A DNA stretch of 63,943 nucleotides from an uncultured Alphaproteobacteria bacterium (lineage in GTDB: Bacteria; Pseudomonadota; Alphaproteobacteria; UBA7985; CAJQQZ01). A program made the translations under genes and the position numbers. Positions 7,984 to 56,905 of this stretch are shown here, piece after piece; position 1 is the first letter of the stretch; each line of letters begins with the position of its first letter. The DNA lies in NCBI GenBank assembly GCA_905480575.1, contig CAJQQZ010000016.1:1-63943 (forward strand), given 5' to 3'. The notes under the pieces were generated by a model. It worked only from the letters and a program-made list of their open reading frames with translations. It was not told where the DNA came from and searched no databases.

Positions 7984-8118
7984 CACTTCCCCGTCGAAGG
8001 ACGGGGCCCACTTCGGCACTTGGCTTGGTGAAACCAGGGAGGCGAGGAAGAAGATCCCGCTCCACTTCTCTGGCATCTCTCAGGTGGACGAGTAGACCCC
8101 GCAACAAGTGCGGGGAAG
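7984..8118. repeat. Family C paired GC-rich repeat, copy 1
   Basis: Begins CACTTCCCCGTCGAAGGACGGGG and ends GACCCCGCAACAAGTGCGGGGAAG, each end being a small hairpin and the two ends inverted to each other. Similar composites lie at 38375-38514, 46017-46173 and 49518-49652. The stretch 7972-8463 has no credible gene; it holds this element, a family B-like piece (8241-8280) and a GTCAT repeat. Confidence 0.65.
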
Positions 8119-8463: not shown

Positions 8464-10512
8464 CTAAAACAGCGTCAAAATATAGGCCAGTATTTGCTCT
8501 ATGCGCGTTAGCAGGGTTTGAACGGCTGTCGGTGCCGTTAGCACATTGATGGATACACCTGCGACAATGGCGGAAAAGACGCCGCCCGCGGCGATCAGGC
8601 CTTTGCGCATCAAGGACATCTTGCGGGCCTTGGTTTTTGGGTCGAGGGCTTCGTCCATGTCGGGCTCGCGCTTGGCGGCGTTCAAGAGGTTGGCGGGGTG
8701 CTCAACCGCTTCTCTTGTTTCCGGGGTTAGGCTCTCCTCAGCTTCCTGTGTTGACAGCAAATCCTGAATGTCGCGCAATATTTGGGTAATCGTCTGGTCA
8801 TTGAGAGCATCGGGGCGCGGTTGCGGTGCGGGCCTGGGTGCATCGGGATCATTGGCGGGGAGGGGCTGGTGCTCAATGCGGGGACGCAGGCCCTCATGAC
8901 CAGCCAGCAAAGCGTCACAGCGACCCAGCAGATTGCTTTGCCAAATCCGATCTGGATCATAGTGATTGATGTCTGTTCGGATGATCTGAACTTTGCTGTC
9001 CAACAGGTGCCAGTTAACTTCTGCACCAGTTTTCGCGATGTCCAACGATTTGGATAAAGCGGTTTGGTAGCGTTCCAATTGCTGACCAAAGGGAGGCGGG
9101 GCCTGAAACAGCGGCAGCTGGAAGTCCGTGACGAAATCGATCATAAAATCCAACTGTGTCTCTAACCGTTGAACCAAGTCTTTCTGGTCGGGGGCCAGTG
9201 GTGGCATGTTCCGGGGGCGGTTGAAGGAAGCGACTTTGCCATCGACCAGATCGAACTCCTGTCCGCTGGCGTTGGTCATCCGACTTCTTAAATCGCTTGA
9301 ACTCGGCGGTGACAGCTTGTCTTTGATGGATTGCAACAGCTTCGCGACCGTCGGATGGTCGGGGTCCAGGTCGTCCAATGATAGACCACTCAAGTCAGCG
9401 TATCGGATTTCCGAAAAGCCAAAAGGAAGCTCGGCTTTATCGAGGCGCGCGTGAACCAGCTTGTTACCGTTCTTTCCTGCCCAGGCTTCGTCGCGAACCG
9501 AGGTAGATAGTACGCTATCCGTCGACCAAAGCGTGAAAACCACGGGTGCATTGGCGAGGTTCTTAGCGACCTGATTACGCCAGTTCTCACCAAAGTTCGT
9601 ATCTTCATCCCACCAACAGGTGAGGCCTTGCCCAACCAAGAAATGCCGAATTTCTCTGACCTGTTCTTTGTTCTCGTGACTGTAAGACAAGAAGATGAAG
9701 GGTTGATCTGGGTTTGGAATTTCCATAGTTTGAGGTGGTTCGTTTACAGCTTCATCTTGATCGTCAGTCTCTTCTTCAACAACCTCAATTTCCTCACTCG
9801 TGTGCCCTCGCCAATTGGGCCAGCGTTCTGGGCGGTCGATGTGTTCCGGCAAAATGGTGCCGCTGTCACCATTCATGCCATTGACTTGAATTTGCGTGAG
9901 AAAATATGAATCAGAAAGATCTGTTCTGATTTCAATGCGAGATCTTTTATCTAGATACGAAGTTGCCAAGAAACTGCGAACGTCAGCTAAATCTAATTGA
10001 GTACCTTCCATGTTAGTTTTTCCCAAATTGGCACCTTTCAGGTCTGCCCTTAACAAATCTGCCTGCGAAAGCTGAGTTTCTCTTAAGTCAGCTGCTCCAA
10101 ATACTGCGTATACTAAGATTGCATTACTGAGATTGGCTTTTCTTAAATCTGAATCAGTTAGATTGCTTTTCATCAGATTAGAAAATTGCAGATTACTCCC
10201 TCGTAGGTCAGCAGCTTTTAGTCCGGCTTCATATAAATTAACCCTTTCTAAGTTTGCGTTCTGTAGCAGTGCATCTTTCAGATTGGCGTTTTGTAGATTA
10301 CAAGACTGTAAGTCAGAATCCCTCAAATCTGCGTCCCTTAAATCAATGCCGACTAACGAAACACGATCTTCCAAATCAAGTTCGCCGGTAGCTTCGAATT
10401 CGTCATAAAAACTCACACCAATGAAATCTGGAACAAAATCGTCTTCTTTCCGACGCCTGTTCCAGGCTTCAACGCCTTCAAGGAGCCATTCTATGTGTTG
10501 AGGATTTGCCAT
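8464..10512 (-). CDS. Pentapeptide-repeat plus TIR-domain protein, C-terminal membrane segment (paralogue 1)
   Basis: 682 residues. Residues 1-40 (HIEWLLEGVEAWNRRR...) form the conserved lead-in seen before many pentapeptide domains. About 51-178 is a pentapeptide right-handed helix (repeated A/N-(D/N)-L-x-x). FLTQ...GDSGTILPEHIDRPERWPNW is the usual cap. Residues 271-375 form a TIR domain: FIFLSYSHENKEQ, CWWDED, and SVRDEAW with a possible catalytic Glu near 342. A polar linker and a hydrophobic helix (about 640-665) end the protein. TIR domains of this kind can be NAD hydrolases or adaptors in immunity; activity here is inferred. The pentapeptide part is strikingly AT-rich. The paralogue is at 49937. 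Confidence 0.85.
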   Translation of the reverse strand: MANPQHIEWLLEGVEAWNRRRKEDDFVPDFIGVSFYDEFEATGELDLEDRVSLVGIDLRDADLRDSDLQSCNLQNANLKDALLQNANLERVNLYEAGLKAADLRGSNLQFSNLMKSNLTDSDLRKANLSNAILVYAVFGAADLRETQLSQADLLRADLKGANLGKTNMEGTQLDLADVRSFLATSYLDKRSRIEIRTDLSDSYFLTQIQVNGMNGDSGTILPEHIDRPERWPNWRGHTSEEIEVVEEETDDQDEAVNEPPQTMEIPNPDQPFIFLSYSHENKEQVREIRHFLVGQGLTCWWDEDTNFGENWRNQVAKNLANAPVVFTLWSTDSVLSTSVRDEAWAGKNGNKLVHARLDKAELPFGFSEIRYADLSGLSLDDLDPDHPTVAKLLQSIKDKLSPPSSSDLRSRMTNASGQEFDLVDGKVASFNRPRNMPPLAPDQKDLVQRLETQLDFMIDFVTDFQLPLFQAPPPFGQQLERYQTALSKSLDIAKTGAEVNWHLLDSKVQIIRTDINHYDPDRIWQSNLLGRCDALLAGHEGLRPRIEHQPLPANDPDAPRPAPQPRPDALNDQTITQILRDIQDLLSTQEAEESLTPETREAVEHPANLLNAAKREPDMDEALDPKTKARKMSLMRKGLIAAGGVFSAIVAGVSINVLTAPTAVQTLLTRIEQILAYILTLF

Positions 10513-10555
10513 GGGGTGGGGAGGGGCTTTCGGTGGCTGGCGGTTGCGAATGCGT

Positions 10556-10586
10556 TCACCCTAAAGGCGTTGGGTGGTTTTGGCAA
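10556..10586 (-). promoter_or_regulatory. Conserved upstream element shared by the two TIR genes
   Basis: On the minus strand ATTGCCAAAACCACCC, then a GCC-rich spacer and TTTAGGGTGA, 43 bases before the TIR start. The same arrangement (ATTGCCAAAACACCCC ... TTAAGGTGA) occurs 26 bases before the second TIR gene at 51586-51617. TTGCCA could be a -35 box and TTTAGGGT a poor -10. It could instead be a regulator site. Confidence 0.45.
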
Positions 10587-10619
10587 TCCGGGAACCGTGG
10601 GCTCGCCCAACAACCGCCT

Positions 10620-17518: not shown

Positions 17519-18709
17519 ATGGCGATACGGCCCCCTATACGACGACCGTTCCCCACGGAGCCTGGCAAGACCTCTATCGCTGGTTTGTATGCTCTCGAGA
17601 ACATGTCGAGAGCCGTCATCGGCCCGGTCATCGCGCTAGAGGGGATGCGAATTCTGGGTGACGCACAGCAACTGTCGGTCATACTCTTTGTTGGTTCGAT
17701 CTTCTCGATGGCGATCATGTTGTCGTCTGGCTGGTTCATCCGCAAGTTCTCGCGCAAGTTCGTCTTCACAGCCGCCTCTGTCATGGCGGTAGTCGCTGCC
17801 TTTTTCTATGTGCAAGAAAACGCGCTGTCTTTTGGTATTGCCACGGCGCTCAGGACCGCAGGGGCCGGATTGGTGATGGCTGTGGTGTCGCTCTATATCA
17901 TGGATTTTATACCGTCAGAAGACTTGCCAAAGGCGGAGGCACGCAAGATATTGATGGCGGCCTCGACCTGGATCTGCTTCCCCATTATCGGGGTCTGGCT
18001 TTGGTCCAATAGCAGCCACTCGTCACCCTTTGTTGTCTCTGGATTTGCAGCAGTCCTGATGTTCCTTTTCTTCTGGTACCTGCGGGTGAAGGAGGCCGAC
18101 GCGATCCAGGTGCCCAATGCGAAGAGCCTCAATATCTTCCAGTCTTTGAGGAAGTATTTCTCCAACCGCAATTTGACCATCGCCTATTTGATATCCTTCG
18201 TGCGGGCGACGTTCTGGTACATGCTCTTTACCTACAGTCCGGTTTATATTGTTCATGCAGGCCTTCATGAATCTTGGAGCGGAATTTTTGTCGGGGTTAT
18301 CACGTCGGTGCTGTTACTCTCCGATTATTTCGCGCGCATTGGCCAGCGTTTTGGCATCCGTCGATCCATACGTTTCTCGTTCTTCCTGGGCGGAATCTGT
18401 TTGACGGCAATCGGTTTATTACCGGAACCAACCGTCTATGCCCTGATTTTCTGGTTTGTTGCATCGTTGACCGCGGACATGTTGGATGTTGTTGGTAACC
18501 TACCCTTCATGCGTATCGTTGACGAGGATGAGCGTGTTGAGATGACCATGGTTTTTGCCACTTGCCGTGAGATGGCCGTGACCGTCACACCAGGGATCGG
18601 CGCGCTGATCCTGTTCTTCTTCCCGATAGAGGCACTTTTTATCTTCTGGGGGCTGCTGTTCCTGGCGGTGGGATCGGTGGTGATGAAACTGCCCAGGCAC
18701 GTTGACTGA
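17519..18709 (+). CDS. MFS transporter
   Basis: 396 residues with about 11-12 hydrophobic helices across the whole length, and short basic cytoplasmic loops (WFIRKFSRKF; RIGQRFGIRRSIRF) where MFS motif A-like loops fall. A CAGGAG box precedes the ATG. It follows the PuuB-like oxidase after 268 bases that contain no gene. The substrate is not readable from sequence; both amine uptake and drug efflux are possible. It ends 9 bases from the convergent gene at 18719. Confidence 0.82.
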   Translation: MAIRPPIRRPFPTEPGKTSIAGLYALENMSRAVIGPVIALEGMRILGDAQQLSVILFVGSIFSMAIMLSSGWFIRKFSRKFVFTAASVMAVVAAFFYVQENALSFGIATALRTAGAGLVMAVVSLYIMDFIPSEDLPKAEARKILMAASTWICFPIIGVWLWSNSSHSSPFVVSGFAAVLMFLFFWYLRVKEADAIQVPNAKSLNIFQSLRKYFSNRNLTIAYLISFVRATFWYMLFTYSPVYIVHAGLHESWSGIFVGVITSVLLLSDYFARIGQRFGIRRSIRFSFFLGGICLTAIGLLPEPTVYALIFWFVASLTADMLDVVGNLPFMRIVDEDERVEMTMVFATCREMAVTVTPGIGALILFFFPIEALFIFWGLLFLAVGSVVMKLPRHVD

Positions 18710-38374: not shown

Positions 38375-38514
38375 CTTCCCCGCACTTGTTGCGGGGTCTA
38401 CGGTTGGGTTGGGTCTGCTGTTGATTGTCGGGGCTCGCTGTGTGCATTTTCAGTTTCCTTTTCTGTCATTCTTCCCAGTGGTTGGCGTGGACCCCTGCGA
38501 CAAGTGCGGGGAAG
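38375..38514. repeat. Family C paired GC-rich repeat, copy 2
   Basis: Opens CTTCCCCGCACTTGTTGCGGGG and closes GACCCCTGCGACAAGTGCGGGGAAG. The two ends are inverted, as in the other three copies. It fills the gap between two phage-type genes. Confidence 0.7.
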
Positions 38515-46016: not shown

Positions 46017-46173
46017 ACTTCCCCGCACTCGTTGCGGGGCCCACGGTGCAGCGAGCGAGCTTTCGGTTGTGACACTCCGTTGATTGACGGGGATGCCGGT
46101 TGGTGTCAACGGCGTCATCTCCTTACAAAATCCCGCCTGATGACGAGTAGGCCCCGCAATAAATGCGGAGAAG
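46017..46173. repeat. Family C paired GC-rich repeat, copy 3
   Basis: Opens CTTCCCCGCACTCGTTGCGGGG and closes GCCCCGCAATAAATGCGGAGAAG; the second hairpin is degenerate. It fills most of 45857-46267, which has no gene. Confidence 0.65.
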
Positions 46174-49517: not shown

Positions 49518-49652
49518 ACTTCCCCGTCGAAGGACGGGGTCTACTCTGGTACTAGGCGTGGTTGTGCGGTTGGTGCTCGACTAGCATGCATGCCGCAATT
49601 CTCCACCAACAGGCAAACTGATCCGTAGCCCCCGCAACAAGTGCGGGGAAGA
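49518..49652. repeat. Family C paired GC-rich repeat, copy 4
   Basis: Opens CTTCCCCGTCGAAGGACGGGG (nearly the same as copy 1) and closes CCCCCGCAACAAGTGCGGGGAAG. Confidence 0.7.
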
Positions 49653-49936: not shown

Positions 49937-51559
49937 CTAAAACCCGAACCACTTGGTGAAGATATCGACCAGTGTATCGAGGCGTTTGACGACGTCGGTG
50001 GTGTTTTTCAGTTTGTCGCCTGCTTCACCCGCCAGCTGGCGCATTTCGGCGGCGCGGTGGGCGGTGCGGTAGGTGGCGTTGAGGGCTTCTTCTTCCGCTG
50101 CGGCTTTGTCGGCTTTGCTGGCGTCGGCAGGTTGGATACGGTTGTCGATCTTGGCCTTGTCTTTATTCAGGTCCTGAGCAAGCGAGGACTCTGCAATCTC
50201 CAGCATGACAGGATAGTTGGAATGGAAGGCCGCGATGTCTTCCTCTTCCGCGGTTTGCAACCTCATCTCTGCGCGGGCGGCGAGGGTTTCGGCAACGTGG
50301 TCTTGCGAGATGCGGATGTCGAGCGCGGATTTTTCCAAAGCTTTGTGCAACTGGCGAATTTGCATGGTGTTGGGCAGCCAGCCATCTTCAACAGCGCGAG
50401 CCAATTCAACCCGCATTTCGGCGAAAATGTCATGGACAAAGAGCGCGTCACCGGCGCTGCCAACCAGAGCTTGCTCTAGCTGTTGAACTATGTCGCTGTC
50501 GTCTTTCAACCCATTGCCACCTTTGGCGAGTTGCAAGATGTCATGCACTCGTTTCAGAGCGTTGGTGTAAAGCGCGGCTTTATCAAGAGGGGCGGTGTCA
50601 CGACTGACTTTGCCTTTGTCGGTGACGGCCAGTTTCTCACCACCCAGCGGTGTTTTCTGTCTCAGGTCGGTGGCTTTGTAGGCTTCGAGCTTTGCCCTTA
50701 ATCCCAGAAGGAGGTTACTGAGAGCGAAGCGAATTCGCTCATCCTTAACAGTTTTCAAACCGCCAGTTATTTGCGCTTCTTCAAGCAATTCCCAAGAGCG
50801 CAGGTCCACCCACTGTGTTTCGCCAAAAAAACGGGGCAGGGTGACGGGCTCAAGCATGCCATGAACCAACTTACCTTGCTTCTGAGCGAAGGTTGCTTCC
50901 TCTATCACCGGGTCAGATTTGGTGGAGGCTTTTGTCCAGAGTGTGAAGACAGCCGACGCGGCCTCCAGCTGGTGGCTGATTTCCTGGCGCCATTTTTGAC
51001 CTGGCAAAATATCCTGATCCCACCAACAGTTTATGCCTTCGGCGAAGAGGAAACGACGAACTTCCCGAACTTGATCTCGATCTTCGGCAGAATAAGAGAT
51101 GAAAACAAAAGGCAGGGCCGGGTCGAATTGCTTTTCTGGTGGCTTGGCACTTTCACGCCAATCCGGCCAATGGGCGGGTCGGTTGATGTGATCGCGTAGA
51201 ATGGTGCCAGTGTCTCCTGCCATGCTGTCCACTTGTTTTTGGGTAAGGAAGTGACTATTTGATAGATCAGTAAAGATGGCTTCCGCTGGCGATGTGCCGG
51301 AAGTCATCTTTAGTACGATACTCCTAACGCGTGAATCCGTAAGGTCCGCCAGGAACAGGTTCGCCCTGGTCAGGTCCGCCTCGGTCAGGTTCGCCTGAAT
51401 CAGGTCAAACCGACCAAGGTCGTCTAACTTATCAGCGGCATTGAAAGCCTCATAAATGTTGGCGTTTTCGAAATCCGGAACAAAGTCGTCTTCTTCACGC
51501 CTTTCGTTCCAGGCTTCGACGCCTTCGAGGAGCCATTCGATGTGTTGAGGGTTTGCCAT
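49937..51559 (-). CDS. Pentapeptide-repeat plus TIR-domain protein (paralogue 2)
   Basis: 540 residues. Residues 1-29 equal those of the 8464 protein except two (HIEWLLEGVEAWNERR...DDFVPDF). The pentapeptide domain is much shorter (about 52-75: ANLTEADLTRANLFLADL). The cap FLTQKQVDSMAGDTGTIL is shared. Residues 150-255 form the TIR domain (FVFISYSAEDRDQ, CWWDQD, a Glu pair at 220-221 where TIR NADases have their catalytic Glu). The C-terminal 280 residues are helical, partly coiled-coil, and differ from paralogue 1, which alone has a clear membrane helix. The upstream element at 51586 is conserved. Confidence 0.83.
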   Translation of the reverse strand: MANPQHIEWLLEGVEAWNERREEDDFVPDFENANIYEAFNAADKLDDLGRFDLIQANLTEADLTRANLFLADLTDSRVRSIVLKMTSGTSPAEAIFTDLSNSHFLTQKQVDSMAGDTGTILRDHINRPAHWPDWRESAKPPEKQFDPALPFVFISYSAEDRDQVREVRRFLFAEGINCWWDQDILPGQKWRQEISHQLEAASAVFTLWTKASTKSDPVIEEATFAQKQGKLVHGMLEPVTLPRFFGETQWVDLRSWELLEEAQITGGLKTVKDERIRFALSNLLLGLRAKLEAYKATDLRQKTPLGGEKLAVTDKGKVSRDTAPLDKAALYTNALKRVHDILQLAKGGNGLKDDSDIVQQLEQALVGSAGDALFVHDIFAEMRVELARAVEDGWLPNTMQIRQLHKALEKSALDIRISQDHVAETLAARAEMRLQTAEEEDIAAFHSNYPVMLEIAESSLAQDLNKDKAKIDNRIQPADASKADKAAAEEEALNATYRTAHRAAEMRQLAGEAGDKLKNTTDVVKRLDTLVDIFTKWFGF

Positions 51560-51585
51560 TGCGGTTCTGGATGGTTGAGGTTGCG

Positions 51586-51617
51586 CTCACCTTAAGGGCG
51601 GTGGGGTGTTTTGGCAA
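51586..51617 (-). promoter_or_regulatory. Conserved upstream element of the second TIR gene
   Basis: On the minus strand ATTGCCAAAACACCCC ... CTTAAGGTGA, as at 10556-10586. The rest of 51560-51888 holds a half GTCAT repeat (51670) and a family B segment (51805-51855), no gene. Confidence 0.45.
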
Positions 51618-51804
51618 TTGGCGTCTTGGTGGGTGGTGTGACGTTGCAGTCGTGAAACCTTTTCGCGTCACGTCATTCTTGGCTCGACCAAGGATCTCTT
51701 TCACACTGTCCTCTCCGCCCCCCCCCACAACCTTCCCCGGAGCCAGAAGGGCATCCGGGGTCTGTTGGCCTTTCGGGGTCTGTTGGCCTTTGTGCTCTAT
51801 TGGT

Positions 51805-55770: not shown

Positions 55771-56151
55771 ATGGCAATAGCACAGATAGAACGGGAGCTG
55801 CCGGACCGTTCCGAAGTTGTTGGGAAGGCCGTTCTTCGGTCCGCTGAGTTACTTGGACTAAGTGCGGCACAGCTTGGCAAAGCTGTTGGGCTGAGCGAGG
55901 CATCCGTTTCGCGGTTAAAGTCTGGCACTTTCCGACTTGAAGTCGGCAGTCCTGCCTATGAATTGTCGCTCTTTGTTATACGGGTGTTTCGCTCCCTCGA
56001 TTCCATCGTTGGCGGTGATAAGGATGTGGCGCAATCATGGATGAAGAATAAAAACTCTGTTCTGGGCGCGCGGCCTTGCGAGATGATCACATCTCTGCCG
56101 CGATTGGTTGATCTGGTAAACTACCTCGATAGTCGCCGAGCTCTTGTCTAA
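55771..56151 (+). CDS. Xre/MbcA/ParS-type antitoxin
   Basis: 126 residues. An Xre-like DNA-binding start (LGLSAAQLGKAVGLSEASVSRLKSG at about 28-52) precedes the toxin-binding domain (DUF2384), visible as SLFVIRVFRSLDSIVGGDKDVAQSWMKNKN and PCEMITSLPRLVDLVNYLD. It neutralises the RES toxin encoded next and probably represses the operon. Its stop overlaps the toxin start by eight bases. GAGAAAGGAT gives a good ribosome site. Confidence 0.88.
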   Translation: MAIAQIERELPDRSEVVGKAVLRSAELLGLSAAQLGKAVGLSEASVSRLKSGTFRLEVGSPAYELSLFVIRVFRSLDSIVGGDKDVAQSWMKNKNSVLGARPCEMITSLPRLVDLVNYLDSRRALV

Positions 56152-56905
56152 GGACGACCTGCCAGAATTCAATCAACATTTCCGCCGGTGCGCCGGGCGC
56201 TGTTGGCGCGTGGTAGAGGCTCAGCATATTACATCGACCCTCAAACTCGTCGATAACCTAGATGAACAATCCGTGCTGGAGGAAGCGCTAGAGGGATCCA
56301 AGCCGTTGATACCGGCGGACTGTCAGCATCTCTGTTATCTCTTTGCCGGACCATTTCGCTATGGAGCAATCTATCCTCATGGTTCTCGCTTTAGGAGAGC
56401 AGGCTTCACTGCTGGGGTTTATTACGCTTCGGAGCAGTCTTCGACGGCCATTGCAGAAGTAATATTCTACCGGATGCTGTTCTTTATTGAGTCGCCCGCA
56501 ACACCTTGGCCTGCGAATGCTACTGATTATTCAGCGATCGAGGCGGCTTTTCAAACCACGACGATGATCGATCTGACCAACGAACCCTACTTGAGCAGGC
56601 TTAGTGATTGGACTGATCACAATTCTTATGGGGCTTGCCAGGATTTGGCAGATAAGATCCGGGAAGCAGGCGGGGACGTCATTCGCTATTCGTCCGTTCG
56701 TGATCCACAGCGCGGGAAGAACTTGGCGCTTCTGTCTGGGCAAGTGTTCGCAAAGGCGGATCCGGTCGGTCAAGAAAGCTGGCGCATCAAACTCAGCAAC
56801 CAAGGGGCGGTCGCCATTCGTGATTTTCCTCGCCTACAGTTTGAGTTTCCCTGGTCGGATTTTGACGACGATAATCGCTATAATGAAGATCTGTTAAGGC
56901 GGTAG
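56144..56905 (+). CDS. RES-domain toxin (NAD-degrading by family)
   Basis: 253 residues from TTG at 56144, inside the antitoxin end. The RES core has CWRV at the start, LFAGPFRYGAIYPHGSRFRRAG and YYASEQSSTAIAEVIFYR (Arg, Tyr and Glu-Ser positions), and ends in a region with NLALLSGQVF. RES toxins consume NAD+ and arrest growth until the Xre-type antitoxin is restored. Length is within the family range and all obvious core residues are present, so the pair looks functional. Confidence 0.88.
   Translation: MSKDDLPEFNQHFRRCAGRCWRVVEAQHITSTLKLVDNLDEQSVLEEALEGSKPLIPADCQHLCYLFAGPFRYGAIYPHGSRFRRAGFTAGVYYASEQSSTAIAEVIFYRMLFFIESPATPWPANATDYSAIEAAFQTTTMIDLTNEPYLSRLSDWTDHNSYGACQDLADKIREAGGDVIRYSSVRDPQRGKNLALLSGQVFAKADPVGQESWRIKLSNQGAVAIRDFPRLQFEFPWSDFDDDNRYNEDLLRR

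What the first reader, a model, noticed from the sequence alone, without database searches (positions are those of the whole stretch)
8464..10512. Two pentapeptide-TIR paralogues with the same N-terminus and upstream element
This protein and the one at 49937 share 27 of the first 29 residues, the pentapeptide cap (FLTQ...GD.GTIL..HI.RP) and a TIR domain. They differ in pentapeptide length (about 130 against 25 residues) and in C-termini: one ends in a membrane helix, the other is helical. Both have an ATTGCCAAAAC...AAGGTGA-type element just upstream. Sensing by a variable pentapeptide helix with TIR output (NADase or scaffold) is plausible; the diverging tails suggest different triggers or sites of action. 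TIR as immune NADase is known for bacterial defence, but this domain combination as a paired system is not something I know to be described.
Basis: partly seen in the sequence, partly recalled or inferred. Interest (0 to 1): 0.65.

Follow-up and report, generated by a model that had tools for sequence, protein, structure and literature searches.

The report
TIR receptors with swapped sensor modules
Two bacterial genes encode likely NAD-destroying TIR alarm proteins built from interchangeable parts: the start and the TIR core are shared, while the repeat-built sensor and the tail have been exchanged, much as immune receptors swap their sensing ends; that they defend against phages is plausible but untested.

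Summary
Window 8464-10512(-) (682 aa) and 49937-51559(-) (540 aa) share 27/29 N-terminal residues, a post-repeat cap, a TIR_2 domain above Pfam's cut-off and a 36-bp upstream block (30/36 identical) found nowhere else in the genome. They carry 24 versus 5 pentapeptides, and only the first has a membrane-type tail.

The N-terminal cap is not special to the pair: it is a widespread cap of pentapeptide proteins fused to ion channels, a hydrolase or unknown domains. What is notable is modular exchange around one TIR clade: (i) P0001's TIR plus tail is homologous to an LRR-TIR-tail protein in another alphaproteobacterium (tails alone E=4e-26), while P0002's tail is not; (ii) P0001's pentapeptide block is compositionally foreign (GC3 0.31 versus 0.65±0.06); (iii) a congener has one copy, at another locus, with 8 repeats.

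Both TIRs keep four residues aligning with AbTir positions needed for NADase activity, including the catalytic Glu. Best reading: single-gene repeat-receptor/TIR-NADase proteins with swappable sensors. Immune function is inferred only: neighbours are metabolic, and no defence model, phage or partner gene was found.

The parts
8464..10512 (-). P0001, 682-aa cap-pentapeptide-TIR-tail protein
10551..10587 (-). shared upstream block ATTGCCAAAACCACCCAACGCCTTTAGGGTGAACGCA, probable core promoter (TTGCCA-17-TAGGGT)
   Evidence: one search shows it is below a strict sigma-70 cut-off
10423..10512 (-). P0001 N-terminal cap, residues 1-30 (MANPQHIEWLLEGVEAWN...FVPDF)
9973..10332 (-). P0001 pentapeptide block, residues 61-180, 24 repeats, GC3 0.31 (foreign composition)
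9808..9924 (-). P0001 post-repeat cap, residues 197-235 (TDLSDSYFLTQ...GDSGTILPEHIDRPERWPNWR)
9382..9696 (-). P0001 TIR domain, residues 273-377; S276, R286, D302, E342 align with AbTir S140, R151, D167, E208
8467..9372 (-). P0001 tail, residues 381-682, homologous to the tail of an LRR-TIR protein (G692)
8539..8601 (-). P0001 hydrophobic segment, residues about 638-658, likely tail anchor
49937..51559 (-). P0002, 540-aa cap-pentapeptide-TIR-helical tail protein
51582..51618 (-). shared upstream block ATTGCCAAAACACCCCACCGCCCTTAAGGTGAGCGCA, probable core promoter
51470..51559 (-). P0002 N-terminal cap, residues 1-30
51320..51394 (-). P0002 pentapeptide block, residues 56-80, 5 repeats
51155..51271 (-). 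P0002 post-repeat cap, residues 97-135
50789..51106 (-). P0002 TIR domain, residues 152-257; S155, R165, D181, E221 align with AbTir S140, R151, D167, E208
49940..50773 (-). P0002 tail, residues 263-540, predicted largely helical, no membrane segment; shared with the congener G001 homologue only

Best explanation
Both genes encode stand-alone, repeat-built TIR receptors. A capped pentapeptide beta-helix (the sensing or docking end) is followed by a TIR domain that is probably an NAD+-cleaving enzyme kept inactive until ligand binding or clustering brings TIRs together; the tail sets location or oligomeric state (membrane-anchored in P0001, soluble helical in P0002). On activation the TIR would consume NAD+ and stop growth or kill the cell, most likely in response to infection or another intracellular insult. 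The family evolves by exchanging modules around a conserved TIR core: the repeat block has been expanded or replaced in P0001, and a relative carries leucine-rich repeats instead. Shown here: domain content, shared 5' block, TIR clade, tail homology to an LRR-TIR protein, foreign composition of the pentapeptide block, conserved NADase-type residues. Inferred: NADase activity, autoinhibition, ligand sensing, defence role.
For: Domain content. Conserved Ser/Arg/Asp/Glu aligning with AbTir residues whose mutation inhibits NADase activity (profile alignment; mutational data in PMC11374754). TIR tree with P1,(P2,G1) 98/93 and G692 as sister 96/90. P0001-G692 alignment over TIR plus tail E=1e-54, tails alone E=4e-26 and about 43 SD above shuffles, while the P0002 and G001 tails score near shuffle level. 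LRR_4 and TIR_2 above their cut-offs in G692. P0001 pentapeptide block GC3 0.31 against 0.647+-0.064 and minimum 0.475 over 289 same-size windows of window genes; P0002's repeats are 0.72, so repeats do not force low GC3. Fast divergence: the congener homologue is 45-48% identical to P0002 while the MFS gene beside it is 89% identical to its window counterpart. No partner gene: each gene has its own upstream block and metabolic neighbours.
Against: No defence-island, phage or plasmid linkage. P0002 has only 5 pentapeptides (about 1.25 coils), barely a sensor. The G001 homologue has lost the Asp (WWSQD) and has Lys in place of the Arg, so NADase activity may not be general. The Trp of the WxxxE motif is absent. 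No confident structure (pLDDT 35 and 39).
Confidence: 0.5

Rival explanations
1. The TIR is a non-enzymatic or weakly enzymatic assembly module: the proteins are scaffolds that polymerise through TIR and beta-helix and control an ordinary process (stress, envelope, development), with no role in defence.
For: Metabolic, housekeeping-like neighbourhoods here and around the LRR-TIR relative (asd-, MFS- and hemN-like genes); D and R not kept in the G001 homologue; pentapeptide repeats are discussed as superstructure-forming scaffolds in PMC7159879.
Against: All four NADase-type residues are retained in both window TIRs and the Glu in all nine aligned TIRs; fast divergence and module exchange are unusual for housekeeping genes.
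Confidence: 0.22
2. The proteins are a two-component or heteromeric receptor: P0001 and P0002 work together through their near-identical caps, one at the membrane and one soluble.
For: 27/29 identity of caps and the shared upstream block suggest co-expression.
Against: Genes 39 kb apart; the congener has one detected copy (84% complete genome); the cap is a widespread module, so identity need not mean interaction.
Confidence: 0.1
3. Secreted or injected effectors against eukaryotic hosts (some pentapeptide proteins and some bacterial TIR proteins are effectors).
For: Partial NCBIfam matches of the repeat block to PipB/PipB2 and other pentapeptide families, all far below cut-off.
Against: Matches are repeat-driven; no secretion genes among the annotated neighbours; the hydrophobic segment is at the C-terminus, as in a tail anchor.
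Confidence: 0.08
4. Decaying or neutral domain fusions without selected function.
For: Short repeat block in P0002; rearranged region between species.
Against: Both ORFs intact; conserved caps, upstream block and TIR residues; P0002 and its homologue align end to end without stops.
Confidence: 0.05

Closest known systems
Bacterial TIR NADases (AbTir, TcpC; Pfam TIR_2 PF13676)
   Same: TIR fold family by profile; Ser, Arg, Asp and catalytic Glu equivalents present
   Different: Trp of WxxxE absent; the pentapeptide block and these tails are not part of those proteins as far as I know; activity untested here
SpbK-type single-gene TIR abortive-infection proteins (PMC12847820, PMC11984713)
   Same: One-gene logic: a sensing region plus a TIR NADase
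   Different: Only a weak PADLOC spbK match in P0001 (E 0.007); different sensing domain; no known phage trigger
Thoeris (ThsB TIR plus ThsA effector)
   Same: TIR protein that could make a nucleotide signal
   Different: No ThsA or other partner gene adjacent
Multidomain conflict proteins with pentapeptide repeats, TRADD-N, TIR or STAND modules (PMC7159879, PMC8195603)
   Same: Constant module combined with fast-varying repeat and effector modules; pentapeptide repeats as supersecondary scaffold
   Different: A direct cap-pentapeptide-TIR chain with pentapeptide/LRR interchange was not found described in the papers searched
LRR-TIR receptors (eukaryotic TLR/NLR logic) and the bacterial LRR-TIR protein G692 found here
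   Same: Repeat sensor joined to TIR; G692 shares TIR and tail with P0001
   Different: Domain order and membrane topology differ from TLRs; window proteins use pentapeptides, not LRRs

Membership tests
TIR domain proteins (Pfam TIR_2) | Profile score above gathering cut-off | tested here: met
   58.4 and 74.0 bits against 28
TIR NADases | Catalytic Glu plus Ser/Arg/Asp equivalents of AbTir S140, R151, D167 | tested here: met
   P0001 S276/R286/D302/E342, P0002 S155/R165/D181/E221; the WxxxE Trp is absent
TIR NADases | NAD+ cleavage | not testable with these tools
   needs an enzyme assay
TIR NADases | Nucleotide pocket in a structure | tested here: inconclusive
Pentapeptide repeat proteins | Tandem A(D/N)LXX repeats, Pfam PF00805 above cut-off | tested here: met
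   91.1 and 21.6 bits against 20.2; 24 and 5 in-phase repeats
Thoeris | Adjacent ThsA-type effector gene | tested here: not met
   Pfam scan of neighbours shows metabolic genes only
Known defence systems in PADLOC | Full-length model match | tested here: not met
   only weak partial TIR-region matches, best E 2.7e-10 over 82 residues of SAVED_TIR
P0001-type TIR-plus-tail module (shared with LRR-TIR G692) | Homologous TIR plus tail | tested here: met
   met for P0001; for P0002 only the TIR is shared, the tail is not
Defence-island or phage-linked genes | Neighbouring defence or phage genes, or occurrence on phages or plasmids | tested here: not met
   an Xre/MbcA-type antitoxin lies 4.2 kb from P0002, not a specific link

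The most novel reading that the evidence does not exclude
Alphaproteobacteria carry a family of single-chain TIR receptors in which a fixed TIR core is recombined with interchangeable solenoid sensors (pentapeptide helices of varying length, leucine-rich repeats) and interchangeable tails, i.e. a bacterial counterpart of LRR-TIR immune receptors that diversifies by swapping sensing modules.
Probability: 0.3. Interest if true: 0.75.

Novelty: new variant of a known kind. Interest (0 to 1): 0.5.

Why it matters
TIR enzymes are known bacterial immune effectors, and how they gain new specificities is an open question. Here the TIR core is constant while the repeat sensor differs (pentapeptides versus LRR), with a compositionally foreign sensor block in one gene. 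That makes sensor swapping directly testable with chimeras and suggests that other pentapeptide-cap fusions (ion channels, hydrolases) may be receptor-effector proteins too.

Tried and rejected
Paired-system reading: rejected as main claim because of distance, own upstream blocks and a single detected copy in the congener. N-terminal cap as a unique signature: rejected; it occurs with ion channels, a DUF900 hydrolase, TIR-less Rhodobacteraceae proteins and uncharacterised C-termini in cyanobacteria, Chloroflexota and Azospirillum; note that the exact MANPQHIE match of L011-L014 is partly selected by the search pattern. A membrane-tail link between P0001 and the TIR-less Rhodobacteraceae proteins looked tempting by eye but is not supported by profile comparison (one marginal E 0.0016 hit for L014). 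Upstream block as a genome-wide regulatory site: rejected, only two copies; a strict sigma-70 scan does not call it, so 'promoter' is an inference from position, spacing and conservation. Gene conversion of the 5' end: 4-fold sites 6/10 identical against 18/66 elsewhere in the pair, but the congener shows the same, so only suggestive. Viral-contig searches found no relative.

Full report
OBSERVATION. The two ORFs are intact at 8464-10512(-) and 49937-51559(-). Pfam finds pentapeptides and TIR_2 above the curated cut-offs in both. The first 29 residues agree at 27 positions. The post-repeat cap (FLTQ..V..M.GD.GTIL..HI.RP..WP.WR) is shared. P0001 has 24 in-phase pentapeptides (61-180), P0002 has 5 (56-80). 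P0001 alone has a hydrophobic C-terminal segment. The upstream block is 30/36 identical; the next best site in the window reaches 22/36, and a 3-mismatch pattern search of the 4.03-Mb genome finds only these two sites. A diverged copy (TTGCCAAGCCACCCAAACGCCTTTAGGTTAA) stands before the homologue in the only congener held. Its position shortly before the start codon and the TTGCCA-17-TA(A/G)GGT layout suggest a core promoter, although a strict sigma-70 scan does not call it.

THE N-TERMINAL CAP IS A COMMON MODULE. Related caps (M(A/V)N.EH...L..GV..WN.WR....PDL) precede pentapeptides in proteins that end in an ion channel (L052, L062), a DUF900 hydrolase (L051), TIR-less tails in Rhodobacteraceae (L011, L012, L014), and C-termini without a Pfam match in Tolypothrix/Nostoc, Azospirillum and Chlorohelix. 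The own genome has a third, TIR-less cap-pentapeptide protein. In evenly drawn alphaproteobacteria (385 genomes) and phylum members (398 genomes), no other genome showed the full cap-pentapeptide-TIR chain; only the top few candidates per genome are scored, so its rarity is not proven.

MODULES HAVE BEEN EXCHANGED AROUND THE TIR. The congener G001 has one homologue (528 aa from the MANPQ start, 8 repeats, 45-48% identical to P0002 end to end) beside an MFS gene that is 89% identical to window 17519-18709. The syntenic neighbours of P0001 and P0002 in G001 have no TIR gene next to them, in a region that is generally rearranged between the two drafts. A search of the phylum found G692, an ORF cut by a contig end with LRR_4 and TIR_2, whose TIR plus tail aligns with P0001 (E 1e-54). 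The tails alone give E 4e-26 and a Smith-Waterman score of 279 against 38+-6 for shuffles; the tails of P0002 and G001 stay near shuffle level (34 and 49). The TIR tree groups P1,(P2,G1) (98/93) with G692 as sister (96/90), though the bootstrap had not fully settled. So sensor type (pentapeptide or LRR) and tail type (membrane or helical) do not follow one another. The pentapeptide block of P0001 has GC3 0.31; 289 windows of the same length in window genes average 0.647+-0.064 with minimum 0.475, and P0002's repeats are 0.72. The simplest account is that this block came from elsewhere while the TIR and tail are native-like; strong codon constraint on long repeats is a weaker alternative. The cap (GC3 0.40) is intermediate and too short to judge.

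CATALYSIS. A profile of nine TIRs matches AbTir, 3h16, SARM1 and other TIR structures in the PDB. The invariant Glu of the V..EA motif falls on AbTir E208; Ser, Arg and Asp equivalents of S140, R151 and D167, whose mutation inhibits AbTir NADase (PMC11374754), are present in both window proteins. The G001 homologue keeps Ser and Glu but has Lys and Ser at the other two. The Trp of WxxxE is missing; in TcpC its mutation had no effect. AF2 models from two sequences were unusable (pLDDT 35 and 39) although they show the beta/alpha order expected of a TIR.

CONTEXT. Neighbours are transporters, oxidoreductases, a ligase, an aminotransferase and a molybdopterin enzyme. No partner gene, no strong PADLOC model, no phage, viral-contig or full-length plasmid relative. 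An immune role therefore rests on what TIR NADases usually do and on the mode of evolution, not on location.

LITERATURE. [quoted passage not shown] I found no description of cap-pentapeptide-TIR proteins or of pentapeptide/LRR interchange before a TIR; most subscription papers are not in that library.

VERDICT. Observation confirmed; interpretation partly supported. New variant of a known kind: stand-alone repeat-TIR proteins with exchanged sensor and tail modules.

Noticed in passing
window 7986-8118, 38375-38514, 46018-46173, 49519-49651; L059 3003-5688: REPIN-like dispersed repeats (CTTCCCCG...CGGGGAAG, two hairpins about 110-135 bp apart). The variant with CCCCGTCGAAGGACGGGG occurs in the window only 3' of the two TIR genes and flanks the TIR gene in the congener, but also occurs in a cluster elsewhere in that genome.
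   Followed up: partly
L005 988-1887(-) (G000 contig C185): Third cap-pentapeptide protein of the genome, without TIR, with an Ala-rich segment and a very acidic Asp-rich tail.
   Followed up: partly
L058 704-1174(-) (G000 contig C120): Third TIR_2 match of the genome (156 aa, just over the cut-off) next to a 194-aa ORF on the same strand; possibly a separate two-gene system.
   Followed up: no
window 55771-56151: Antitoxin of the Xre/MbcA/ParS type; the overlapping ORF 56144-56905 may be its toxin.
   Followed up: no
window 4.4-56 kb against G001 contigs C68, C173, C208, C284, C346, C4: Gene order of this region is strongly rearranged between the two species of the genus (e.g. window 13.2-15.7 kb adjoins 52.3 kb in G001); draft assemblies, so misassembly is possible.
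   Followed up: partly
L131 628-2193(-), L144 4454-6019(-): Bacterial LRR-TIR-membrane tail protein, cut by the contig end, next to an asd-like gene.
   Followed up: partly
L065 (Azospirillum brasilense plasmid): Cap-pentapeptide gene directly after a CHAT-domain gene, with DUF4231 and TIR genes following: a possible conflict-gene cluster.
   Followed up: no
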